This document shows positions 10,448 to 39,775 of a stretch of 64,000 nt of DNA, piece by piece. Both the position numbers and the translations under genes were made by a program. The stretch lies in NCBI GenBank assembly GCA_010645155.1, contig JAAGOF010000300.1, positions 921,312 through 985,311 of the forward strand, read 5' to 3'. This DNA is from Tigriopus japonicus. Lineage: Eukaryota > Arthropoda > Copepoda > Harpacticoida > Harpacticidae. Below the pieces are notes generated by a model that made no database searches, had not been told where the DNA came from, and worked only from the letters and a program-made list of their open reading frames with translations. How positions within the stretch are numbered: the first letter of the stretch is position 1; every line of letters begins with the position of its first letter.

Positions 10448-13400
10448 TCATTCATCGGCTGTGGGAGTGCCATCTTTCCCTCTGTGTCCGGGAACAGGCT
10501 CACCAGGCCCATCAAATCGATCCCGGTCCCGGTGACGATTTTGGTCCCGTCCTCGGTGATTGAGACGATCATCCTCGGATTGGCGTCGATTCCAATGATC
10601 ACGGTCTCGATGATGGCCCCGATCACTTCCACGTCGATTGTCTCGACGGTCATGGAAACGATCCCGGCGATCCCTCGGATAATTGCGATCTTCTGAAAAG
10701 CGACCCCCTCCGCCACCACCTCTTCGTCGATCGTGTGGCTGATGTTGTTGATCCTGGGGATCGAAATGCTGCTGTTCCATGTGCCTCCATGGAGGTTCGT
10801 TTCGAGGCCCTTCCCATGGATCATCTCCTCGAGTCCAAGGCCGGTTTTGCTGTCCAGGAGGCTCAAAACCTTGCATCCATGGCCCTTGTTGCTGTTGTTG
10901 GGGTGGTTGATGAGGATGATGATGGTGGTGATGATGAGGATGGGGATGTTGTTGCTGTAAGGAGTGAAGTGAGGGAGCGCCATTGGCGTGCCAAGAAGGT
11001 CCCCCACCTCCCATGTTGGTGACAGGATGATGAGTTTGAATTCCAGATGCCACAGGATAGGGCGGTACTGGAGGCATGGCTAAGCCGGATAAATGAGCCC
11101 CATGAGTAGTTGAGGAGGGTGTCCCTGGATATGGTGGGACTTGAGATTTGGGTAAAGATTTTGTTGGATTACTTTCCATCTCTTGCACCTTGGCCAAAAG
11201 ATCGGCATCCGACATTGAGCTCAAAGTCGAGGACGGTGGAGCTTCTTTTTTCCTTGGATCACGGGAATTCGACTGGCCCTCATTTGTACTTGCACCAAAA
11301 AGGATGCTGGAGATTGTGCTCGGGAGACCTTGAAAACCTGGAGCAGCTTTGGCTGAGGGATCAAGGCCAAAAGCCGGTCCTGAGCTCTCAATGAGAGGTT
11401 TGCGTTTATCGGCCTGAATAACCGTGGGATCTCCTTGACCGGTCAGAGAGGCAATCTCGGCTTTTTCTCTGGCAATTTCCGCGGCCAGTTTCTTCAGTTT
11501 GGCTGCAAATACATCATTCGGCGAATGCGGGGGGCTAAATGCGGCATCCTCACTCGACTCCATCTTGGCCATTTTCTTTTTCGGACCTTCTTCATGTTCG
11601 TCTTCGTCTTCAAGAGGAAAAGCCTTTTCAGGGTCATAGTCTTCCTCCTCCTCTTCTTCGTCTTCTTCTGAATTTGGATCAGAGAAGGCGTCCATATTGC
11701 CGGCCTTGGCTGGGTCGTACTCTTCTTCTTCTTCATCGTCGTCGTTATCTTCATCAATGATTTTGACCTCAATTTTTCGCTTCTTCTTGGTTGAAGCGTA
11801 ATTGGTCGTTTTTTCGGTTCGCTTAGCGGCCTTATCTGACAAACTGGTGGACGTCAAAGTCTTGGGCCGGATTTTAAAAGCGGAACGTTGTTTCAAGCTG
11901 GAAGAACCCTCTGGACGATGACGAACCGTGCGAACCATCAAGGCCACCAATATTTTTCCCTTTACGTTGTGCAAACCCGGTGGATCTAATGGACGTAGAC
12001 ATTCGGGCAAATCCGTTTCCGTCTCAACAGGAATGACGTAGCAGTCCTTGACCATTTTACTACAATTGCCGATCACACCCAATCGTGCCTTCTTCTTCAA
12101 ATAGGAGTAGAAATTCTCATATCCCTGTTTCTCTAACTCGGAAGCGGCTTCGAGCCTAATCAATAATATTTCTTTCGAGGGTACCTCTGCCAGATCGACA
12201 ATGTATTTCCAAACTGTATCAGGGGGAATGCGACCTACTACTTTGAGAACCTCTTTGGGCAAATCTTGTCGGAGGAAATCGGAGACTCCAGAGAGTCCGA
12301 AAGCCTTGATATTGAAGTTGGCAACGTCAGGCATATTCACCAGGCCATCCCAAACGAGTGAGGGCAAAGATGGCGAAGGGGCCAACCCTTCATCGCCTTC
12401 ACTGACAACAATTTCAGGAGTTTTAATGTGTACGGTCGAGGAGACTTCTTCTGGAGGCGATGATAATGGCATGGAACTGTCATCCCCTAAACGAACCGGC
12501 TCCGGTTGACTGACAAGGCTATCACTCCCCGAAGCCATGGTCTGATTGAATTCGAAGATGGCCTTTTCGGCCTTGGCCATTTTCTCTGAAAATTCCTTTT
12601 GCCTTTGAGCCTCTTCTTTTTGTTTGGCCGATCGGATGTTCTGCATAATCTTTTCCACAGATTTCTCATCTTTGTCCTTTGTTTTCGTTTCAGTTTGCAC
12701 GTTGTCCTTTGTTGGACTCGACGATATTGTGGTATGACTCCCAGATGAAGAGCGCTCTTTTGAAGTCTCATCAGAATGAGATTTACTACTGCTTTTGTGA
12801 GAATGGTGTCGATGACGCTCTTTGTCAGAGCTACTCGATGATTTGTGTGACCTGGACGAAGAGCTTGAGGATTTATCTTTGTCTTTGGATGATGATTTAC
12901 TAGGACGATGATGATGGTGGTGGTGGTGATGGCGATGGCGACTACTTGAACTTTCCTTGTCCTTTCGGGAGGAGGTTGACTTCTGATCTCGGCTGCGATC
13001 TTTTCCTTCGTTTTTACTTGTTGGTGTTTTCATCTGTAAATATAATCTCTCGACATGTTAGCTGTGGGCTGAAACAAACAACCAACTCATCCGCTTCTGG
13101 TTAGCGAAATACTCACCTCTCTCTCATCATCGAGAGTGTCAAGGATCCTTTCCTCTTCCGGCATTTTGATATCGTTCACGTTGACCGACTTATCCGTCTC
13201 AATAATTTCCTCGCCTTTATGGCTTTTGACTACGAGTTTATTGCCCATGGCCATCATCTCGAGCTCGTGGGATTTGATCTTCTCAATGTCATGCTTCAAC
13301 TCGGCTTCTCTCCATTGTTGAAGCTCCTTGCTGGCCATCTCCTCTGGACTCATGTCCACCAACTTCTTTGGACTGATCTTCCCTGAAACGATCTTACGGA

Positions 13401-16234
13401 ACAGGCCGTTGTTCTTTGGATCCTTGATATTAAAAACAAGCCGTCGATATTGATTTTTGTACTTAAGGCCGACATCCTTGTTAAAAATCTCATATAGTTC
13501 TTTTTCAATCGCTTTCACTAGGTCTTTTAGTTTGCTCTCGTCAATTTTAACATCCTTGTTCTTTTCAAGTCTGCCTTTCAATGCATCCAAGAGGCCTTTG
13601 CAGGCATTTTCTCTCAAAGGCTTGACGTCTTTGGGCTTAGCGGTAATCATGATTTCCCCTTTAGGCACATGAACGGTCGTTTTTCGGGCAGGTGGGTCGT
13701 GGTGTCGTTTGGGCACGTTCACATTGTGTTCATTGGATCTTCGACGAGCGTCCATGGCTCGCTTCGCATCTTGGCTCTCTCTTCTGGATTCAGATTTACG
13801 ATTGGAGTCCTTCAGGGAGGCTTGAAGAGTCTCTCGAGCAGCAGAGAGGCTAGACAAAGCCATCGATTTGTACTCGGCTAGTTTTTGGTTGACTTCGTCG
13901 GAGTTCTTGGTTACTTTATCATGAGGTGGAATGATCTTGGGCCCCCGCTTTGATTTTTCCACATGAACAATAGATTGTTTCTTTTGTGACCTAAGATACA
14001 GAGACCATTGAATCAGTACGCACAGTTTATCTTTCAGCGGGCGCTCTTAGCGTCTTAATTCCTATTAACGAGAAATTCTGGCACAAAGCCCATTTTGGTG
14101 TGTGACTTACCCGTAGAACTTGGAGGTGGGCATTGATTTGGGGATGACCACGTGAAACTCGGTGTGCTTTCTCATCCAATCAGACAAAGTTTTGATGGTT
14201 GGAGCACTCGGACCACTGAACATCTGATTTGATTTAGGATTCATGACAATGATCTGATTTGTGGCCAAAGATTCATTGCTTGTCTGAAATGTATACCACT
14301 CAGGTGCTGTCTTTTATTACTAGACACTTGAAAACACCCAACTTACCTTGGACGCAAATGCTTTTTTAGCTCGATCTACATGGGCTTCGATGCATTTATC
14401 CGAACAATAAAGAGAATGCTCCATGGGCACTTGGTCGCACTCAAAGCAAATCTTGCCTTTGGGCTTCTAAAACAAAAAAAAATAACTAATATCCTACATT
14501 GCCTTAAACAAAACAAAAAAAAAACGGACGTACCTTTTCACCCTCAACGATAGTTTTAGATGAGGTATTGGATACAGCTTTAGTTGAATCGGTGCGTTTT
14601 GAAGGGGATTTTTTCTCAATATCTCCCTCATTTTTGACGACTAGGGCCTTTTTCTTGGACTCTTCTCGTTCCTTTAACTTTTGGGCTAACTCAATTCTTT
14701 GCTTTTCTTCCCGGGCTTTTTCCTCGTCGGTTTTGCATTTTTCGCAACGCCACTCTCGTCCGTTCTCTTCCATAGTTTTGCCCATCTTCTTTGTGATACC
14801 CACACATTTACCGTGGAACCAATCGAGGCATTGATCACAACAAATCATAAATCGATTATTGTGCGGCTGCTGGCAGACGCACCAAAGACGTTCGGGATCA
14901 TCTTCCGAGTTCCAGCCATCCCCTTCATCATCATCCTCGTCCTCCTCATCGTCTTCCTCTTCTTCCTCGTCTTCCACGTTTTTCTCAACCAGATCCTTTG
15001 GCTCAGCGGGCTTGGACTCGGACTCGCGAAGAAATTCTTCCTGAACATCCGCAATGCCTTCAGCGGGCTTTGTGGGTGGCGCGGGTTCAGGCACACTTTT
15101 GACTGCCGGGGTTTTGACGGTTGACCGAGATACGTCAATCGTGACAAAATCCCCTTGAAGATGGGCCGGTACCTTTCGCTGTCGTTTAGGCCGCCCAGCA
15201 GCCACTGAGGTTTGGGCGGGCGGGACGGGACTAGACGTCACAACGGCGAATTTGCCGGTTCCAACGGCGTCTGATTTGGCGGCCACCGCCGAGGTGGTTT
15301 GAGGCTCTGTTGGGTGTGCAAAGGCTTCTTTTTCTTTCTTGAGAAGCGCCTGATTTTCCATTCGTATGCGCTCCGCCTCCTCTTTGATTTCTTTGTCCAT
15401 TCGGCGTTGACTTCGACGTTTAGGACGACCTGGCGTCGACTCGACCGCGGGCCGAGATTCACTTACATCAGGGGACTGCAAACAAAATCGATTTAAAATG
15501 GCACGAAATCCCGGTCCAATCGACCTCATCCGTGACGCTCTTACCGTCGTTGGCCGTTGGGGCGAATGCTCAAAGCTCATTGAGTCACCCGTGGCGTTCA
15601 AATCCGGAGCCAGTTCCGAAGCTAATATGTGATCCAACGGACCGTGTTCGTCGCTCAACATGACATGGCCCAACATGTCTTTGGCCTCGGTGGACTGTAA
15701 CACGCTCTCCAACTGGCTGATTTGTTCCTGATCCAAGATGATGGAATTCGAGGCCGGATTTAAGGCGGCCGGATCATGCGATTCGACTAAGGTGGCATGG
15801 GCCAAGAGATCCCGCAAGGCTTGGGCATCACCCGCACTCGTCCCACCGGGACCTTGGGTCAGATCTAGGGTTTCCATATCGGGGGGTACGAACTCGGCCG
15901 CATCTTCGCCGCCGACCGAGGGCGTCTCTTCCAAGTCAGCGGCATTGGGGGCGGGATCACCCTCGCCCGGACCACCCAATCGGACAATCGTGACCTGCGT
16001 CGACGTTTGATTGGAATCTAGAAACACAATGAGAAATCGCATTAGGCGTGGATGGGCCACCGGATGGGATGGCTTCAACATTCTTTTGACCGTACCAATG
16101 ATGGATTGAAGGACGTTTTGGTCGTAGAACATCTTTTGGTTCTCGTCAATCATGATGGTGACGGATTTCTCTTGGCCTGAGGGCGGATCACCCGTGCTAT
16201 CCGCCGCCGTGAGCGTGTCCTCCGTTTCCATCAT
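10448..16234 (-). CDS. DIDO1: DIDO1/PHF3/pps-like chromatin and Pol II-associated protein
   Basis: Nuclear PHD-TFS2M-SPOC protein. Relatives (vertebrate DIDO1 and PHF3, fly pps) bind histone H3 tails and the Pol II C-terminal domain and affect transcription and splicing. Six coding exons: 16234-15545, 15475-14534, 14466-14347, 14283-14111, 13990-13117, 13033-10448. All have GT/AG borders and compatible phases, giving about 1794 residues. PHD finger at ~427-476 (WCVCQQPHNNRFMICCDQCL, then WFHGKCVG and WRCEKCK). An extra Cys pair motif, CFECD..YCSDKC, follows in exon 3. TFIIS central (TFS2M) domain at ~765-905, with LYEIFNKDVGLKYKNQYRRL, FNIKDPKN and LVDMSPEEMAS. SPOC domain at ~1156-1305, with VWDGLVNMPDVANF and YENFYSYLKKKARLGVI. 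The last exon also has a His/Ser/Lys-rich segment, acidic patches, a Pro/Gln/His-rich region and an Arg/Asp/Gly-rich tail. Overall homology is certain; splice details are predicted. Confidence 0.92.
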
Positions 16235-24016: not shown

Positions 24017-25936
24017 ATGGTAAGTAAGTCAGATTGGGCTTGACACATGGTTGGCATTTGCTTTCGAAGTGGCTTATTGCCGTGTCTTTATGTCTGACAA
24101 AGATTTCCGGGGTTATGAGGTCACCTTGGCCGTTCAATTCGTGCCGATGGATTTCGCCGGTCCAATGCGCGATGCATTGCGTTACGTTGACGCCATTTTG
24201 CCACGTCATGGTAATTCTCGCTAGAGGGCGTTAGGTCAATCAATCCGGCTATCTTTCATCAACCTTCTTGTTTTGTGTTCATGCCGTTGTTCAAATTCAA
24301 ACTAAGCGTGTTGCGTGCTCGAGCAATGTCAGCAATACGACTTGCGAAGCTCATGTAATTTGAGCATCTTAGAATGTGGCGGACGATCCGAAGACACTTG
24401 TGCCACAATCCATGGCTGGCATTACTCGTGTTCGCCTTGGGAATGCTCATGTATAACCGTTCTGTGTTTCAGACGAGCTCCAGCTCCTTCCCCGTGATCA
24501 AGTCCCAACACTCTTTGGTGGCCAAGCATGTGACTCCCGAGAAATGGAACAAGCTCTCTGGCATCAAGACCAAAACGTCTGGATTCACTTTGGCCCAAGT
24601 AAGTTTTGTTCAATAGGCTGCTAGTCAAGCAAGTCAGTATCAGCTTGAAGTATGTATGACGCGATAAGCCAAAAAGCGTTTAATGCCCACAAGATACTGA
24701 CCTCTTTTAAAAAAGGCTGTTGGGAGATGTGCGATATCGTTCTACGTGAAGCCTTATCTCTGTTTGGCCTCTTTTTCAAGCCCTTTTCGTGCTTCTCCTC
24801 GAAGGCGATTATTTATGAATGCATTTCTGAGCAGGAAAATGCGATGCATCGTCTTGAGGCGGGTTAAGCCGGTTAAGACTGGAAGATGAGCTTACCAAGA
24901 AGAAGAAAAATCATAAACCCGTTTTTGAAAGATACACAATACACTCACTGGGTTGTTGATGCTAACATTAATGTCTCTTTCCTTATTCAAGGCCATTGCT
25001 TGCGCTGTGCAATTTGACGACCAACATTGCGGTATCTATGCCGGAGACGAAGACTCTTATTCCGACTTCAGCGATGTGTTCCACCCCCTGATCTTGGAGT
25101 ACCATGGGCTCAGCCCCGAGTTTTCCCATACCTCTGATATGGACACTACCAAGCTAAAGGGCAACATCGATCCCAAGGCCCCTGTCAAGTCGACCCGTAT
25201 CCGTGTGGGTCGTAGCATTGAGGGATTCGGTCTGTCGCCCGGAATCACGCGTCAACAGCGTCTCGATGTCGAGAACCTGATGAAGCACGCCTTCGGCAAG
25301 TTGAAGTACGACTTGGCCGGCAAATACTACCCTTTGCAGGGTATGGACGAGGGAACCCGTCAAAAATTGGTGGATGATCACTTCTTGTTCATGTCTGGAG
25401 ACAAGAACCTCCAAGCCGCCGGTATGGAGCGTGATTGGCCCGAGGGTCGTGGAATTTACCACAACGAAGCCAAAACTTTCTTGGTGTGGGTCAACGAGGA
25501 GGACCAACTTCGCATCATCTCGATGCAGAATGGAGGCGATGTCCGTGGCGTGTTCGACCGCTTGGCTCGCGGCATCGACGCCGTGGCTGATTCGGTCAAG
25601 TCCGAATCGGGCAAGAATTTCATGCTCCACCCCAAATATGGCTATTTGCATTCGTGCCCCACCAACTTGGGTACTGGCATGCGCGCTTCGGTGCACATTG
25701 ACCTGCCGGGCTGGACCAAGGAAGGCTTGCCTGCCTTGAAGAAGCGTTGCGAGGAGTTGGCTCTCCAACCCCGTGGCACCCGTGGTGAATCCGGCGGCCA
25801 AACTGGTATCACCTATGACATCTCCAACAAGCATCGTTTGGGATACTCCGAGGTCCAATTGGTTCAGACCATGATCGATGGAGTAAACACCTTGTACAAG
25901 GAAGATTTGGAATTGCAGAAGAAGCACGGCTTGTAA
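24017..25936 (+). CDS. Phosphagen (arginine/creatine-type) kinase
   Basis: Catalyses reversible phosphate transfer between ATP and a guanidino substrate, buffering cytosolic energy. Exons 24017-24019 (only the ATG), 24473-24598 and 24992-25936 join in phase 0 to give 357 residues, the usual arginine kinase length. The N-terminal domain (TPEKWNKL, KTSGFTLAQ) resembles creatine kinases. The substrate-specificity segment reads CGIYAGDEDSY: 'GIYA' with its tyrosine is arginine-kinase-like, while 'GDEDSY' is creatine-kinase-like. The catalytic domain has RGIYHN, KTFLVWVNEEDQLRIISMQ, the reactive cysteine (about residue 265) in CPTNLGT, and RGTRGE. Arginine kinase activity is the likely job in an arthropod, but the sequence is a mosaic. 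ATTAAA at about 26042 could be the polyadenylation signal. An alternative in-frame N-terminus starts at 24374 (see findings). Confidence 0.93.
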
Positions 25937-31560: not shown

Positions 31561-34500
31561 TTATTTCAAGAGCCTGCCCGCTCGGTCATTCGCCATTTTC
31601 ACTCGAGACTCATTCGACTGGGCCTGAAGAGGGTGAAATATCAGATTAGTTCATGCTTTCCTTTACTATTCAGTCATCACCACCCACTTTGAGGTTTATC
31701 CTGTCCAGTTGAGAATTTTGATTGGACACCTCTGTTCCCATGTCTGCGGCCATATTCCGTAGATTACCGATCATTGTGCTCACTTGTTGCATGTTCTCTT
31801 CCATTTCCTCTTCGCGATCGTCGTTCGTGATCCTGAAGGAGTACAAGACTTAATGAAGAATCTCAATCCACAATCCGTAATCAAGTCAAACGAGCTACTA
31901 CCCTAGTAGTGAGATCTTAAAAATGAATGAAATGAACAACGAGCTGGTTTATGAGCAAAGATTGGATCGGAGATCCAACTCTTATATGGTTCCGTCCGGC
32001 GTGAGGAGATGCGAATCGTCAGAATTTAGCAAAGCTCATCATTGTTCGTTCTGTCGAATCTATCTTGGCATTCCAATGAATCATGCCTCCTCAATTAAGA
32101 GGGAATCAATCAGAATGGACATCAAGGTCGCTTCCTTTAAATTCAAAACTACTTGGAGCTCCTCAAATAAAGAAGTATTTGCGTACTAATTCTTTTGCCG
32201 TTTATTGGCATTAAAGAGAGAAAGAAAGAGAGCGAGGTGTCGATTTAGCGTGGCAGAAGTTTTTACAAGAACGTCGTAAAGCGATCTCAAACATTAATTT
32301 CTATGTGTAGTAAAGTCCTTGCATCGATTCACTTCTACCTTGGATACCATAAGTCATTGTGATTAATCAAGTATGTACTTACATTGTGCTTAATGTGGAA
32401 TTCAATATTCTAGGTCATATTCTATTATGGAGCGGACTGAATTATACAGGGTTGGCCACTTAACCGAGCAGGGGTAATTGTTAGTTACGGACAATTAGGG
32501 GCTTCGAATCAAGAAGTCATTGTCACAAATGGTTTTAATTTTACGGTTATCTAGAACTTTTGTTTTTAAACAATTTCTCGATTTGACGAATTGACGAGGT
32601 CTTGAATTCAAGTTGCATTAACAGCAGTTATATTTTTGTTGGATGAGTGGACTAATTTAGGTGGGAATTTTGGGGCCAAACTGGTTAGGGATGGATCACA
32701 ACTGGGTTAGTTAAAGTTTGTAACGCAAAGGAAAAGTTATGGTTTCGATTGATTTTCAAAATCAAGAATTGTAATTGAGCTTTTTTGGGGGTTAATCTTC
32801 ACTCTGAGGCAGCCCTAGCCATTTTGGCCCCAGAATTCCTAGCTGAATTCGTCCGATTACACTCATCATACCTTCAACATTTATCCCACAATTGGGTTTG
32901 ATAGATTAATGTAAAGTTTATTTTTCTTCCTCACAAGTCCATTGGATTGGGCTTTCAGAACAAGAGAGGAACTTAATCTCAAAACTGACTTTCTCTCAGA
33001 TTTCTATTAATTGGGAGGTGTTGTAGGGTAATAAAAGGCACCCACTTGATTTTGGAAGGTTTAGAAATTCAAGTCTTGTTATTGGATAAAAATTTTGACA
33101 CAAATTACTGATAAAAGTGACCCTTAATGTCAGATGTGGTTTCTTTGCTTGGTTTTAAGAGCAAGGTCAATTGTAGGCTAGAGTGCCATTTCTTCTCCAA
33201 AACTCAATCCCATAAACCTTTTAATTAAACCTTCATTTGAATCCTTTTATGGGATGAATGTGGAAGGTACTGTTAACAGAATAGTGTTCATTCTGGAATT
33301 CGATGACTGGATGAAAAGAACTTCAGTCTTCTTTTATTGCTAATTGAATTCAAAGCCCCATCAAAAATGGGGCCCACTTAGAGAAATTGTTTGAAAACAA
33401 AAGATCTAGATGAATATATAATAAGAACTATTTGTAGCAATAATTTTTTGATTCAAAGCCCCTGATTATTCGAAATTTACAATTTTCCTTGTCCGGTTTT
33501 AAGTGGCCAACCCGGTAGGCTTCAATCAAATGTGTTGAGACGTTCCTCGAGTGGAATTTTATTGGTATGAAGAAGCAATTTCAAAAAGCAAAATCTGAAA
33601 ATACCCTTCGTACATATAATGTACAAAAAAACGGATCCTCAACCTGCAATTGGCATGTCTGACAAGCAATTACTGAATACGGGTAAGAACGGACAAATGA
33701 TCAAAACTGGTTTTTGGAATAGCGTTTTTTTTTCTTTTCGGTAATAGCTTTTTTCGTTCAAAATTTGAAGTGACAGAATTCACTTCCGATTTGATTCAAA
33801 GAGCAAGAAATAAAGCTTCGACAACTTTCGACCTTACACAAGGTCAAAAGCTAGAAACGCTACAACTGTACAAGTTCAAGCGAGAAAAATGCACCTCTGT
33901 AACATTTTACATAGGCGATTTTAATATTGTATGTCGATATGGGACATGTCGTCCCATCCCCTACATGGTCCCCAACATGTTTAGATCAACTAGAATATCA
34001 CAATGGGTTTCCACATTAGCTCTAGCCTATTTGGATGTTACTGCTCGATTCGATCATATATATATCAAATGGAATCAAATGGAACAAGAATCAAACAAAG
34101 GGTTTCGTCATGCCCTCGGTTTGAAGAAGCTCAAATACAAACTAAAATCCTTGTCTTAATTAGGATTTACCGAAATAAAGATGATAAGAAATGAGATAAG
34201 ATTTTCACGAAGGTCAGCTTGCTCGCTACGTGTATGTAGTAGTTGCATATGGAAGAAAAAAGTAGTGCTCTAAGGATTGTCAGAGGAACAACGGTATTTG
34301 GTATACTGTAGTGGTTTCAAGACCTTTCAAGTTAGCCTTGGCGACGAACGTTAATCCTAGTAACTTCACATAGCCACGGGAATTCGCAGCTAAAAGAGAT
34401 GGTATATGCACCACATCATCAGTCTTGAAGTCACAAAGACACTTATTTTCACATGAATGGATTGTATCTACTATGTAGGTTGTAAGTTGGTACATGGTAG

Positions 34501-37500
34501 GTGAGGAGGTTGTTACTTAACATCATGGTGTTCTGAATGGCTTTTTAGGTTTGGATCAAATACCCAAAGATATCATGGCACTTTTTGGACCCGTAATTCC
34601 ATGGGGAACAACTTTACTTTTATTGTTTTTCATAAGTTTAGGTCAAGGGAAAAATTATATACCTAAAAACCTATTAAATATGACATTTCTAAATAAACTA
34701 TTTAACCCATATATAGAGACCATTTAGTTACCTTACGAATTCAAGTTGAATAAAAATTCATTCATCAACAGCTAAGTTATTTGACTTTGCATGGTCCATT
34801 TTTGACACCAGAAAGCCGAAAAACGCTACAGTTAAATGAAAAACCTAATTCCCAAAGATCCCAAATAGCTTTTCAATAATGCTAAAAATAAATGAATTTT
34901 TGAGTTTTGGAGATTTTGTTAAAATAACTCAAAATAATATGAAATCTCACTTAAAAAGAATTTAAACAAGATTTTCGGAGAACATATTTCATAACTATTT
35001 AGAGTGCACTCACTTTTTTGTGTGTTCAGCCAAAATTACAAATAAATATGTCTTACAGATTCATATTCAAATGTACAATTTCTTGAAGGACCATCATGGA
35101 ATTCAATTCAGTTCAAAATGGACTAAAACAGAAACTTGAAACATCAACCGAATTTTTCAAAACTGCTAAGTTTTGCCCAACTTTGAGTGCCTTTGACATT
35201 GCAAAAATAATTTTTTATCGCAAAATGTATTTTCAGTGCTTTTTAAGTGAAATTGTATATTATTTTGAGCTATTTTGACAAAAAAAAATCATTTATTTTT
35301 GCGATATTGAAAAGCTATTTGGGATCTTTGGGAATTTGTTTTTTCATATAACTGTAGCGTTTTTCGTCTTTTTGGTGTAAAAAATGGACCATGCCAAGTC
35401 AAATAACTCAGCTGCTGATGAATGTATCTTTATTCAATTTGAATTCAACACATGACTAAATGGTCTCTATATATGGATTAAATAGTTTATTTAGAAATGT
35501 CATATTTAATACGTTTTTAGGTATATAACTTTTCTCTTGACCTAAACTTATGAAAAACAATAAAAGTAAAGTTGTTCCCCGTTGAATTAAGGGTCCAAAA
35601 AGTGCCATGATGTCTTTGGGTATTTTGATCCAAACCTAAAGAGCCATTCGTAACACCGTGAGCAATCATTGATCCTTGGGGTGGGTCTGGAGTTTGAGCT
35701 CCCCCCCTGGCTCACCCTATTCTGTGTGTAGCTTGTGAAAAAAAGATTTAACTGGTACTTACTTGGCTACATAGCCCCCTTGGGGCCCCATCCCACCCAT
35801 TTGAGTTGGAGGCGGTCCACCACCTCCCACACCTCCATCTTCACCTCCTTTCCAGACAGCGTCATCTTCTTTGAACTCATTCGATCTGAAAGTACATCAC
35901 CATATCATACTCCAGTCTTTGCCTACTACGGCCTTGCCAGTTTATGAAGAAACCTTCTTCAGTAGTAGCTTACTTTTTCCAGAACTTGGGGAAAATGCCA
36001 CAACAAAGTTCCATTCCTTTGAGAGCCTTTTCGGCAATCTGCATGTCGGCGTTGATCGAATCCAAGCCGCCCTCGATTTTTTCCAGTTGTTCTGAAGGGA
36101 AAACGAGTGGGATCCAGTTCAGTGTCTACGATCAATGAACTTTTCGGGAAATGAAGTACAGACAGAGAAGAACAAACGAAGAAGAAGAGAAGCCTTTTGG
36201 CATCGTGTGCTTTCAAAAGTCGGGACACGTATATTTTGCAGGCATTCTCGTACAGATCTAAGTCAAGTGGTTCCATGAGTTTGACGACGGAGACGGATAG
36301 GAAGACGAGTCCATTCACGAACAAAGTAATCCTTTTTCTGCGGTCTGAATTTTGAACATGAAGGACAAATTGTTTCGCAACGCACTCGTCAGTCAGGCTG
36401 CTGGCAATGGTTCTGGCGTTTGCATCGCGCACAAATATCGAGAACACATATCATATTTGGTCAGATTTGAGTCAATGGGAAACACTCCAGAGATACCTAG
36501 GGTGTGCAACATTGCCGAACAAACCTTTTAACCTGTGCATATCCAAACTCTGTTTTCCCTGCTGTCTCTTTCCTTGACTACTTCGGTTCAAAAATGACTA
36601 GTTTCTCTCTGAGGCAAGCTTTTCTGGTAAGTATGGTGCCTGAAGGCAGGAGGTCACCGCAACTCATGACATACATCAACTAATAAAAGGGCACCAATAC
36701 GGATTTATTCACCACTTGAGAAGCAAAATGAGTGTCCATCTAATGATATTTTCAACAGTACAACATGAACACGAGGTAAGAATTCTCCGCTCGATGCGGA
36801 TACTGCTCTTCCGTTTCAGGGTATGCGTGAAACGTCATCCATCATTTCATAAGTTTGCCCGCTCTTTTATTTGCCGTAGCTACCCGATTTTCCTCCGAAG
36901 AGGCCTAAACAAACGGAGAGAGAGAGGTTGATTGGTTGGTTAGTAGGTAGGTAGGTAGGTGGATGGGTAAGGGACTAAGTACACGGATGTAGAGAGAGCA
37001 ATAAAAATAGGAATTGGAACTAGATTAGACCAATCGTACCTTTTCATAAATGGTGCCAATCTGCTTATTTTGAGTTTCGAGCTCGGTTCCCATGTCAATG
37101 GCCATATTTCGGAGATTATTAACAATTGCAGCCACGTGGTGCATGTTGTCTTCCATTTCGTCTTCACGAATATCGTTTGTGACACTTGGGGAAAGACGGT
37201 GGTCGGTCATAAACTGAACCATTTGTCATTTCTTTCTACCTAGGTTGAACTTGAATCCTCCCTTCTCTAGGTAGACAATTGGGAGGTCTACCTACTTGCA
37301 AATGAACCCTGCTGCATTTTGCTTGCCTCCTAGAATGCTCGGATGGTCCATTGAAATTCGACGTTGAGTAAGGACTGCACCTGCTTGCGAAGCATCCTCA
37401 TTTGTAGGGAAATTATTGGCTCCATAGGATTCCTCGGCCTCTAACCTTGACTTCCTCCCTCTGCATGCAGGAATAGATGGCGAACAAAACACATGATAGC

Positions 37501-39775
37501 GATTTGGCGGACTGGATACATGACTTGGCCAAATAGCATCGTGAACCATGGATCAGTGCGTATGGCAAGTCGAATTTGGGAAGGTTACGAGAGGTTACCC
37601 TACCTTAAGCAAGGAAGGCATCGCAAAAGGCCTAAGCAGCAACTTTCCATGCCTCGTAAGGCTCTTTCAGCCTGATGCATTTCAGAGTTTATGTTATCCA
37701 AACATTGCTCAATGTGGTCGAGTTGCTCTGTGTAAGGGAAAAGATGCCAAAACGTTGAGTGAGAATTTGGTTCTAATTGCACGGCATTTATGAAGCTTAA
37801 ATCATTTGCAATCAGTGCGGATTGACCTCTTTCCAACCTCCTTTTATCCGACCAAGTTTATCACGGCCCTTGTTGTTCAATATCATAAACTTGTTTTCTT
37901 TGTTTTTAGACATCAAACAACATCCATGCGTTTTTTCGAAGCCTACATTTATCAACTAACAAGAATATTCTTACATTAAATGTGCAAGGTTTAAAAGTCT
38001 AAGGGAAATCAATCACAATAACATCAGCCTGAATGTGAAAAACCAGAAAATTAAAAAAATAACAATGTTATATTTGTTCATCATCAGTGAAATATCAATT
38101 CGTGGCGGATAAACAAATGAAAGCTACAAGGGACATCTGTAATACATTGTCGATAAGTAAGTCCTTGAATCGTGATTAATGAATGAACGTAGAATACGTG
38201 TATGGGGTTGGCCGAAACTGGTGTAAGTGCTTTTCAGTCACTTCAACAGAAACTCTGTTCTCCGATTGACTTCGACAATCCGACTCTCCACATTGAAACT
38301 CTACAAATGGGCAGAATGTGTGAAAATAAGGTAGGTACATAGCACATGGGGGCCTGATACAAAATGGGTGCGTTGAGTCTGATACAAAAAATAACCAAGG
38401 TTATTTCAAAAGTTTCTCTGTCCGTTTGTTGGCCAATCCAATCCTGGCATCCACCAGTTGACTCTGTAGAAAGAAATCAAATCAAAGCAAGAAATAAAGA
38501 GCAAATCAAATTAAAGATAAGAGTAACAAAACAAAAGTGCCAACCACATCCATCACCTGCCATTCTTGTTAGACCCTCTCCAAATGTTAGCAAGATCTCA
38601 AATACCTTTGTGTTTAATCTATCAATCTGACTATTCTGAGTCTCAATCTCGTTGCCCATTTCACTGGCCATGGCTTTCAAGTTTCCAAGAATATTTCCAA
38701 CGGATTGCATGTTCTCCTCCATTTCGTCCTCGCGTGCATCGTTATTGATCCTTTGAATGTACGGACCATCAGATTGAACGTTAACGGCCGAGGCACCCGA
38801 GGGTTTCGAGCCAGTTTTGGTTGGAGATTTGCCATTACTTTTACCATTGGCTTTGCTCCAAGACGCGTCGGTGTCCTGAACTTTGGATTGTCTGTTGAAA
38901 CGATAAACCCCAACACCAAGAGAGCCCGATCATTTCTGTACTCGCTTTGGTAATCTCTACTACAAGCTTCGGTTTACCTTCGCCAAGGAAAGATACACAA
39001 TCCACACCATTTTTCCATTCCGGTCAAATGCTTCTCTGCTTGTTTCATTTCGGCATTCATGTTATCCATGCCCTCTTCAATGCGATTCAATTGTTCTATA
39101 GTTACCGATGAAAATGGAATTGATTTCAACAAGCTTAGTCTTTACGAAAATCTGAACTGTCTTAGGTTACCTCCTTGGACATCCAACAATTCCAGCGTTT
39201 TGGTTCCAGCTGCTTGGCTCTGAATTAAAAAAAAAACGAACAAAAACAAAATAAATTTTAGAAAAGCAAATAAATGTATGATGATGCTACATTTATAGAC
39301 TGAGAAGATTCTTAATAATAACAACGATCAGAATATAATAGGAAATGAACAAGATCCGCCACCAATTGATCATTTGATCACCAATGAATCGTAAAATTTA
39401 AGTGATTCCAATTCAAACTTCATGCTCACACCCTTCATCACCCCCCTTTAAACGGAACTTACCTCCTTGATCGTCCAAAGCCACCAAAGTTTTGATACCA
39501 GCCTCCTTGGACTAGGAAAGCATTGATTGTAAACAACAAATCAAAGGTGAGAAAACACAAGTTTGAGCCCTTTTCCCAATAAAAAACATTTCTACAAAAT
39601 GACCGTCACCGTCTACCGTGTTCTCTGTTGCCATAACTCTACTTACATCTTCGCACATGGCGATCATTCTTCGCGTACTCTCCAAAGATTCATCCGTTAT
39701 TTGGTTGGACTTGAGTTGGAGAGATTCCAACTCAGTAAGTGGAGGACCTTCATCATGTTGTACTTCGGCGGCCAT
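31561..39775 (-). CDS. SNAP25: SNAP-25 t-SNARE with three alternative C-terminal modules
   Basis: Palmitoylated Qb/Qc SNARE that forms the synaptic fusion complex with syntaxin and synaptobrevin. Shared N-terminal exon: 39775-39647 (43 codons). An in-frame TGA sits 9 nt before the ATG, and a 5' UTR acceptor lies near 39834. Then one of two 49-nt exons (39511-39463 or 39219-39171), both in the same phase and both carrying the first SNARE motif's central Gln. Then one of three complete C-terminal halves, each with cysteine linker, second SNARE motif, last exon and stop (modules 1-3, listed separately). Predicted products are 214, 224 and 208 residues, matching the family (~206-212). I saw no other N-terminal exon in the locus. 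The alternative reading, three genes with undetected first exons, is less likely. Confidence 0.9.
32644..32865. mobile_element. MITE, TGAGTGTA family, copy 2
   Basis: 222 bp inside the long intron of SNAP-25 module 3, starting TGAGTGGACTAATTTAGG and ending CGATTACACTCA-like. It shares ends and centre with 26342-26596. Confidence 0.8.
34524..35660. mobile_element. Complete element with ~345 bp terminal inverted repeats
   Basis: The left arm, about 34524-34870, begins CATGGTGTTCTGAATGGC. The right arm, about 35316-35660, ends GCCATTCGTAACACCGTG. The arms are nearly complementary throughout and share 'aacaactttacttttattgt' and 'ctatatatggattaaatagt'-type segments. The ~450 bp centre has no transposase. 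It is inserted in the SNAP-25 module 3 intron. Partial copies are at 3204-3545, 49255-49604 and 59625-59725. Confidence 0.88.
36842..37727 (-). other. SNAP25: SNAP-25 C-terminal module 2
   Basis: Cysteine-linker exon 37727-37604 ends [15 protein letters not shown], with four cysteines near the palmitoylation site. Spacer exon 37460-37296 is the longest of the three (about 55 residues). SNARE exon 37184-37040 encodes [20 protein letters not shown] and [13 protein letters not shown]. Last exon 36904-36842 encodes [20 protein letters not shown] then TGA. All phases match the shared N-terminal exons. Confidence 0.87.
38401..39095 (-). other. SNAP25: SNAP-25 C-terminal module 1
   Basis: Cysteine-linker exon 39095-38978 ([17 protein letters not shown]..., [12 protein letters not shown], two Cys). 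A single 286-nt exon 38891-38606 contains both the spacer and the second SNARE motif ([20 protein letters not shown]-type centre [10 protein letters not shown]). Last exon 38463-38401 encodes [20 protein letters not shown] then TAA. In modules 2 and 3 the spacer and SNARE parts are separated by an intron; here they are fused. Confidence 0.88.
39171..39511 (-). other. SNAP25: SNAP-25 mutually exclusive exon pair (end of first SNARE motif)
   Basis: Exon a, 39511-39463, encodes [16 protein letters not shown]. Exon b, 39219-39171, encodes [16 protein letters not shown]. Both are 49 nt, start in phase 0 and end in phase 1, and both have AG/GT borders. Including both or neither would shift the frame (49 and 98 are not multiples of 3), so exactly one must be used. 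Each keeps the zero-layer Gln of the motif (DDQG or DVQG). Confidence 0.85.

What the first reader, a model, noticed from the sequence alone, without database searches (positions are those of the whole stretch)
31561..39775. SNAP-25 gene with three tandem complete C-terminal halves
One N-terminal SNARE exon region is followed by three consecutive modules. Each encodes cysteine linker, spacer, second SNARE motif and its own final exon with stop codon. All joining phases match (linker exons start in phase 1 after ...GGAG). SNARE exons of modules 2 and 3 are both 145 nt and all three last exons are 63 nt. All three keep the SNARE2 central Gln (ETQ, ETQ, SNQ). Known animal SNAP-25 diversity comes from one duplicated exon pair. 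Swapping the whole C-terminal half with separate 3' ends would be a new arrangement, as far as I know.
Basis: partly seen in the sequence, partly recalled or inferred. Interest (0 to 1): 0.92.

Follow-up and report, generated by a model that had tools for sequence, protein, structure and literature searches.

The report
Copepod SNAP-25 gene with swappable tails
One copepod gene for the nerve-release protein SNAP-25 carries a single front half followed by three complete back halves, and proteins from other copepods show two of them joined to the same front, each with its own matching middle exon.

Summary
On the minus strand, 39775-31561, one start exon and two alternative 49-nt exons (SNAP-25 "exon 4") are followed by three full C-terminal sets (M1, M2, M3) with separate stops; all six joins are open. 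No first exon for M2 or M3 was found. The genome is close to Tigriopus californicus.

New: exon-4 choice and tail choice go together. Of the proteins listed (best 120 per search), all 98 M1-tailed cluster representatives lack the "a" exon 4 and all 6 M3-tailed ones that reach it have it exactly, although each query carried the opposite exon. M1- and M3-tailed environmental proteins share identical first exons (40/40, 45/45 residues). An intron-poor paralogue looks like an old retrocopy of the a+M3 mRNA. M1 tails occur in three copepod orders; Eurytemora has a second tail after M1.

M2 is open in two Tigriopus species, but no protein joining it to a first exon was found. So two of three tails are supported by relatives. 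Equal exon lengths are probably inherited. Human GNAO1 is a smaller precedent. New variant of a known kind.

The parts
39647..39775 (-). E1: first coding exon, start of SNARE1 (129 nt, ends phase 0)
   Evidence: the only strong E1-like stretch in the window; in the genome the other close match is the C6 paralogue, with distant 29-30% matches on C1 and C4
39463..39511 (-). E2a: exon 4 version a (49 nt), [16 protein letters not shown], with the SNARE1 central Gln (layer position recalled)
   Evidence: identical 16 residues in 6 of 6 M3-tailed proteins that reach it
39171..39219 (-). E2b: exon 4 version b (49 nt), [16 protein letters not shown]
   Evidence: b-like exon in the M1-tailed proteins
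38978..39095 (-). M1 linker exon L1 (118 nt), end of SNARE1 plus cysteine linker
38606..38891 (-). M1 spacer + SNARE2 in one exon (286 nt)
38401..38463 (-). M1 last coding exon with stop (63 nt)
37604..37727 (-). M2 linker exon L2 (124 nt)
   Evidence: T. californicus P0001
37296..37460 (-). M2 spacer exon (165 nt)
   Evidence: P0001
37040..37184 (-). M2 SNARE2 exon (145 nt, AAG acceptor)
   Evidence: P0001
36842..36904 (-). M2 last coding exon with stop (63 nt); AATAAA 133 nt downstream at 36709
35974..36091 (-). M3 linker exon L3 (118 nt)
   Evidence: full-length copepod proteins 86-87% identical to the M3 protein (P0003, P0007)
35763..35885 (-). M3 spacer exon (123 nt)
31688..31832 (-). M3 SNARE2 exon (145 nt)
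31561..31623 (-). M3 last coding exon with stop (63 nt)

Best explanation
This is the main SNAP-25 gene of a Tigriopus-like copepod. Exons 5-8 (rest of SNARE1, cysteine linker, spacer, SNARE2, stop) exist in three diverged tandem copies behind one first exon and two versions of exon 4. A transcript takes E1, then one exon 4, then one tail, and ends there. Two joins are seen in relatives: E1-4b-M1 and E1-4a-M3. Choosing exon 4 therefore goes with choosing the whole second half of the t-SNARE, giving SNAP-25s with different SNARE1 surface, palmitoylation linker and SNARE2. The 4a/4b pair looks older than copepods (insects put a, b and c versions on one tail); the tail copy probably arose next to 4b in the copepod stem and the pair then became a dedicated 3' end. 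SHOWN: exon anatomy, frames, no other first exon found, relatives' proteins with both joins. INFERRED: that the window's own species splices likewise, the order of duplications, that M2 is used, and how the choice is regulated (competition of 3' splice sites and early polyadenylation is my guess).
For: Gene model and six open joins. No other E1- or E2-like exon in the window: the two E2 exons score 77 and 76, the next minus-strand stretch 25, plus-strand control 27. No further close tails in the 194.85-Mb assembly except the one-tail C6 paralogue; remaining matches are 29-37% identical, on C1 and C4 (only best candidates are scored there). M1 clade 100/98, M3 plus paralogue clade 100/100. Coupling: 0 of 98 M1-clade representatives have the a exon (highest identity to it 11/16, median 8; 51 of 98 are single-member clusters), from an a+M1 query; 6 of 6 M3-clade ones that reach exon 4 have it exactly, from a b+M3 query (120 of 1367 and 120 of 767 hits listed). 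Same E1 on both tails: P0121/P0226 40 of 40, P0122/P0239 and P0122/P0256 45 of 45 residues, on contigs of about 1 kb. T. californicus P0074 = 4b+M1. C6 paralogue: E1, a-like exon 4 and M3-like linker in one exon; its tail is 103/145 identical to M3 against 72/143 to a crayfish and 57/143 to M1. Tandem tails in Eurytemora P0149. All three SNARE2s keep Q at layer 0.
Against: No transcript from the window's own species was available. M2 has no full-length protein in the list. The database shows 90% cluster representatives, so an a+M1 form could sit inside the 47 multi-member M1 clusters, and all 7 M3 clusters have several members. Automatic scoring called 92 of 98 M1 exon-4 sequences b, 5 a and 1 c before I compared identities. 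P0005 (T. californicus, gene prediction) holds both exon-4 versions with 8 extra residues between. L. salmonis P0124 begins with a different N-terminus before 4a and M3, so alternative starts may exist. AATAAA follows M2 closely, but none lies within 900 nt of the M1 or M3 stop (one 1146 nt after M3). Most of the proteins come from unnamed environmental samples, so 'same gene' rests on identical E1 protein, not DNA.
Confidence: 0.82

Rival explanations
1. M2 (and perhaps M3) are separate short genes or tail-only transcripts with their own promoters, not alternative ends of the SNAP-25 gene.
For: TCALIF_08585-PD (P0001) is an M2-only model that starts at an ATG inside the linker; L. salmonis P0124 has a different N-terminus before exon 4a and M3.
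Against: No N-terminal SNARE exon was found before M2 or M3; M3 is joined to E1+4a in P0003, P0007, P0121 and P0122; linker phases fit exon 4; the T. californicus annotation files the M2 model under the same gene number as P0005. For M2 this rival stays open.
Confidence: 0.12
2. Free combination: both exon-4 versions are used with all three tails (six isoforms).
For: All six joins keep the frame; nine of nine linker/rest hybrids are open too.
Against: 0 of 98 M1-tailed and 0 of 6 M3-tailed cluster representatives show the other exon 4.
Confidence: 0.12
3. M2 is a decaying tail under weak constraint.
For: Long branch (1.79), AAG acceptor, no full-length protein and no close match outside Tigriopus in the list (next hit 54%).
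Against: Open in two species and 129/148 identical to T. californicus; 3rd codon positions differ most from M1 and M3 (91 and 89 against 52-65 at positions 1 and 2), though part of that pattern may predate any decay; SNARE2 layers ordinary except E at +4.
Confidence: 0.15
4. Misassembly or collapsed paralogues.
For: Tandem copies are a classic assembly problem.
Against: The tails are only 40-46% identical in protein, too diverged to be confused; T. californicus files M1 and M2 models under one gene number; Eurytemora shows two tails in one predicted protein.
Confidence: 0.02

Closest known systems
Vertebrate SNAP25 exon 5a/5b
   Same: Mutually exclusive tandem copies of the exon after exon 4; 39 residues, nine differ (PMC2581893, passages seen); that it completes SNARE1 and carries the cysteine linker is recalled
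   Different: One exon, common spacer, SNARE2 and 3' end (recalled); here the rest of the coding part is present three times with separate stops, and it goes with exon 4
Arthropod SNAP-25 exon 4 a/b/c and last-exon isoforms (database entries)
   Same: Copidosoma X1, X2, X3 carry a, b and c exon 4 on one E1; the b version resembles copepod 4b
   Different: There the versions share linker and spacer; in the copepod rows listed the b-like version goes with M1 and the a version with M3
Human GNAO1 exons 7-8
   Same: The two last exons are duplicated and spliced alternatively to give two C-termini (PMC7599900, passages; figure legend passage in PMC5896119)
   Different: Two copies of two exons, in a G-protein gene; no coupled internal exon is mentioned in the passages seen
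Tropomyosin 3' exons (TPM1, lev-11, Tm1)
   Different: As described there, 3' exons, not a multi-exon half of the protein
C6 SNAP-25-like paralogue (relative of T. californicus TCAL_03071, P0129)
   Same: Similar N-terminus, a-like exon 4, M3-like tail
   Different: Separate gene, one tail, one coding-region intron at a new place

Membership tests
SNAP-25 (Qbc-SNARE) | Two SNARE motifs with a central Gln each, joined by a linker | tested here: met
   PDB SNAP-25 match 6.5e-51 over residues 14-213 for a+M1 (the M2 and M3 forms were not run there); Q at layer 0 in all three SNARE2s (layer positions recalled); the SNARE1 Gln lies in both exon-4 versions
SNAP-25 (Qbc-SNARE) | Cysteines for palmitoylation in the linker | tested here: met
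   Linker cluster: M1 two, M3 two, M2 four (M2 has two more elsewhere in the tail); palmitoylation itself not testable
SNAP-25 (Qbc-SNARE) | Pfam SNAP-25 model PF00835 above its cut-off | tested here: inconclusive
   a+M3 41.7 bits (cut-off 25): met; a+M1 22.7: below; a+M2: no match at E 0.001. The model covers the variable linker/spacer region
Mutually exclusive tandem exons | Homologous neighbours, same phase, both-in or both-out breaks the frame | tested here: met
   4a/4b:
Mutually exclusive tandem exons | One and only one used per transcript | tested here: inconclusive
   Relatives' proteins show one exon 4 each, but P0005 (a gene prediction) holds both; no transcripts of this species
Alternative terminal exon sets (GNAO1 type) | Duplicated multi-exon 3' block with its own stop per copy | tested here: met
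Alternative terminal exon sets (GNAO1 type) | Ends joined to the same upstream exons | tested here: inconclusive
   Identical E1 residues on M1- and M3-tailed proteins of other copepods; not shown for M2 or for this species
Alternative terminal exon sets (GNAO1 type) | Separate polyadenylation sites | tested here: inconclusive
   AATAAA near M2 only; one 1146 nt after M3

The most novel reading that the evidence does not exclude
In copepods the nerve-release t-SNARE is switched as a locked pair: the choice of a 16-residue piece in the middle of SNARE1 fixes which whole second half, with its own linker, SNARE2 and 3' end, is used. This is a copepod-wide system dating from before the split of Calanoida from the other orders, with a third tail (M2) kept in at least Tigriopus.
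Probability: 0.6. Interest if true: 0.7.

Novelty: new variant of a known kind. Interest (0 to 1): 0.6.

Why it matters
SNAP-25 is usually thought of as one conserved protein with a small exon swap. A gene that swaps the second SNARE helix, the membrane-anchoring linker and the 3' UTR together, in step with part of the first helix, would be a natural set of matched t-SNARE variants. It would let one test which SNARE surface residues evolve together, and how a cell couples an internal exon choice to a 3'-end choice several exons away.

Tried and rejected
Pfam family search of the own genome (PF00835) rang nowhere, controls included; replaced by protein queries. Separate first exons for M2/M3: none found. 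Order of origin of M1, M2, M3: not resolved; one clade of all copepod tails is not rejected (p-AU 0.40), nor are M2+Eurytemora second tail (0.37), M1+M2(+X) (0.53) or M2+M3+B (0.40). My first regular-expression split of exon 4 missed 30 of 310 rows; the alignment-based split missed one, P0001. The a/b/c scoring of exon 4 gave doubtful labels for 6 of 98 M1 rows, so I report identities instead. Splice-site strength: pyrimidines in the L1 acceptor 10/17 against 13/17 and 15/17 for L2 and L3; suggestive at most. Structure prediction was not run. Paper searches: (93 papers, 25 listed), SNAP25+copepod (3), SNAP25+mutually exclusive exons+insect (2), Tigriopus+mutually exclusive+alternative splicing (4), SNAP-25+crustacean+isoforms+splice (3), (51, 15 listed; 21, 10 listed), SNAP25+Tigriopus (0), SNAP25+insects+splice variants+exon (1). 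From the listings none describes this arrangement; I opened passages of four papers only. That is all that 'not in print' rests on, open-licence papers only.

Full report
WHAT IS THERE. The gene lies on the minus strand. Exons: E1 39775-39647; two versions of a 49-nt exon, E2a 39511-39463 and E2b 39219-39171; then M1 (118, 286, 63 nt), M2 (124, 165, 145, 63 nt) and M3 (118, 123, 145, 63 nt). The chosen borders are all GT-AG; the acceptor of the M2 SNARE2 exon is AAG. Six of six E2/tail combinations give open proteins, of 214, 224 and 208 residues. Leaving out both E2 exons or using both breaks the frame with each of the three tails. The tails agree in only 62/153, 68/147 and 68/148 residues (slightly fewer in the alignment). 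A solved SNAP-25 (3j97_M) matches a+M1 at 6.5e-51. The exon lengths 49, 118, 123 and 145 are, from memory, close to those of vertebrate exons 4-7, so equal lengths in M2 and M3 are probably inherited; M1 seems to have lost one intron.

WHOSE GENOME. 194,852,151 bases in 158 contigs. The best named relatives are Tigriopus californicus proteins: P0074 is 91% identical to the a+M1 query, 146/154 over the M1 tail alone. The genome has one other close SNAP-25-like gene, on C6, and weaker matches (29-37%) on C1 and C4 that I did not follow. In the window the E2-like score falls from 77 and 76 for the two exons to 25 for the next minus-strand stretch (plus-strand control 27), and no second E1 shows up.

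WHAT RELATIVES SHOW. Three protein searches gave 434, 767 and 1367 hits, of which the best 120 each were listed: 304 different proteins. A FastTree tree of their tails puts 98 with M1, 7 with M3 and 36 with the C6 paralogue. A careful tree of 67 chosen rows (of 308 tails) gives the M1 clade 100/98 and the M3 plus paralogue clade 100/100. M1 includes Tigriopus (Harpacticoida), Lepeophtheirus (Siphonostomatoida) and Eurytemora (Calanoida). So M1 seems older than the split of these orders.

COUPLING. The M1 query carried exon 4a and the M3 query exon 4b, so the searches leaned against what was found. None of the 98 M1 rows has the a exon: the closest shares 11 of 16 residues with it, the median 8; 51 of 98 are single-member clusters, where the row is the whole cluster. 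An automatic score had called 92 b, 5 a and 1 c; those six are divergent and are covered by the identity figures. For P0149 exon 4 was set by hand from its own sequence. All 6 M3 rows that reach exon 4 carry [16 protein letters not shown] exactly; the seventh, P0125, is cut short. Limits: clusters hide minor forms, M3 has few clusters, and only the best 120 hits per search were seen.

ONE GENE OR TWO. P0121 (M3) and P0226 (M1) share all 40 residues before exon 4; P0122 (M3) and P0239 or P0256 (M1) all 45. Their proteins come from contigs whose longest are 908-1063 bases, whereas the window's gene takes 8.2 kb, so they read as spliced RNA. With one such E1 in the window's locus, alternative splicing of one gene is the simplest reading; DNA of those contigs was not seen. 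The Eurytemora protein P0149 (322 aa) runs from M1 into a second tail, which I take as a gene prediction that stitched two neighbouring tails together. Its second tail is 74/147 identical to M3, 62/150 to M2, 62/150 to M1 and 76/150 to a crayfish protein, so it cannot be assigned; its place in the tree is open.

A FOSSIL mRNA. The C6 paralogue is 204 aa in two coding exons: the first runs without a break through E1, an a-like exon 4 and an M3-like linker, and its only coding-region intron is at a new place. Its tail is 103/145 identical to M3 against 57/143 to M1 and 59/145 to M2, and it falls inside the M3 clade, though its exact place there is weakly supported (82/37). Relatives exist in T. 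californicus and L. salmonis (P0129, P0140). I infer a retrocopy of the E1-4a-M3 mRNA, made before those lineages parted.

OLDER BACKGROUND. Copidosoma X1, X2 and X3 carry a, b and c versions of exon 4 with one E1 and, read by eye, the same tail (X4 differs slightly in the linker); Thrips X2/X3 and Bacillus X1/X3 have identical tails with different exon 4. Of the 164 other tails the score called 101 a, 44 b and 17 c; the remaining 2 are P0001 and the second Eurytemora tail, which have no exon 4 of their own. A tick, a wasp and a beetle show isoforms with different last residues. So an exon-4 swap probably predates copepods, and copepods appear to have given b its own tail; 16 residues are too few to prove that the b versions are one lineage.

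FUNCTION. SNARE2 layers are ordinary in M3; M1 has S, V and T at +3, +4 and +7 and M2 has E at +4 (layer positions recalled). Linker cysteines: M1 two, M3 two, M2 four. I expect different membrane anchoring and fusion kinetics; this is inference. M2 is open here and 129/148 identical in T. californicus but its upstream partner is unknown. The third codon position differs most in all six pairs of the four tails compared, as under selection on the protein.

PRECEDENT. Vertebrate exon 5a/5b (PMC2581893, passages), GNAO1's two last exons (PMC7599900, passages; PMC5896119, passages) and tropomyosin 3' exons (PMC9741552, passages). The kind is known; the size of the swapped part, the three copies and the tie to an internal exon are the new points within my searches.

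Noticed in passing
34523-35661: Inverted-repeat element in the M3 intron: 330-nt arms, 91% complementary, 408 nt apart; 41 matches of one arm were listed in the genome, both arms here included, with only 40 of 1614 candidates scored. It helps make this intron 3930 nt long.
   Followed up: partly
32435-33527: A second inverted-repeat pair (118-nt arms, 77%, plus 29-nt outer arms, 83%) in the same intron, possibly an old DNA transposon.
   Followed up: no
L022 2949-6595 (C6:2064948-2068594): Intron-poor SNAP-25 paralogue with an a-like exon 4 and M3-like tail, likely an old retrocopy shared by several copepods.
   Followed up: yes
G000 C1:13489183-13489830 and C4:7985246-7985590: Distant SNAP-25-like matches (30% and 29%) elsewhere in the genome; not identified.
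   Followed up: no
window 24953-25936 (+): ATP:guanido phosphotransferase (arginine-kinase-like, name recalled) coding stretch, Pfam PF00217 2.2e-69.
   Followed up: partly
window 10448-16234 (-): Neighbouring open stretches with PHD finger, TFIIS central and SPOC domains, in that order on the minus strand, perhaps one gene.
   Followed up: partly
P0017/P0056 (Amblyomma), P0180/P0092 (Polistes), P0169/P0188 (Anoplophora): SNAP-25 isoforms with different last residues in a tick, a wasp and a beetle, suggesting alternative last exons; separate from the copepod case.
   Followed up: partly
P0005: T. californicus TCALIF_08585-PB holds both exon-4 versions with 8 extra residues between; artefact or real alternative donor unknown.
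   Followed up: no
P0124: L. salmonis isoform X3 begins with a different N-terminus directly before exon 4a, lacking the first part of SNARE1.
   Followed up: no
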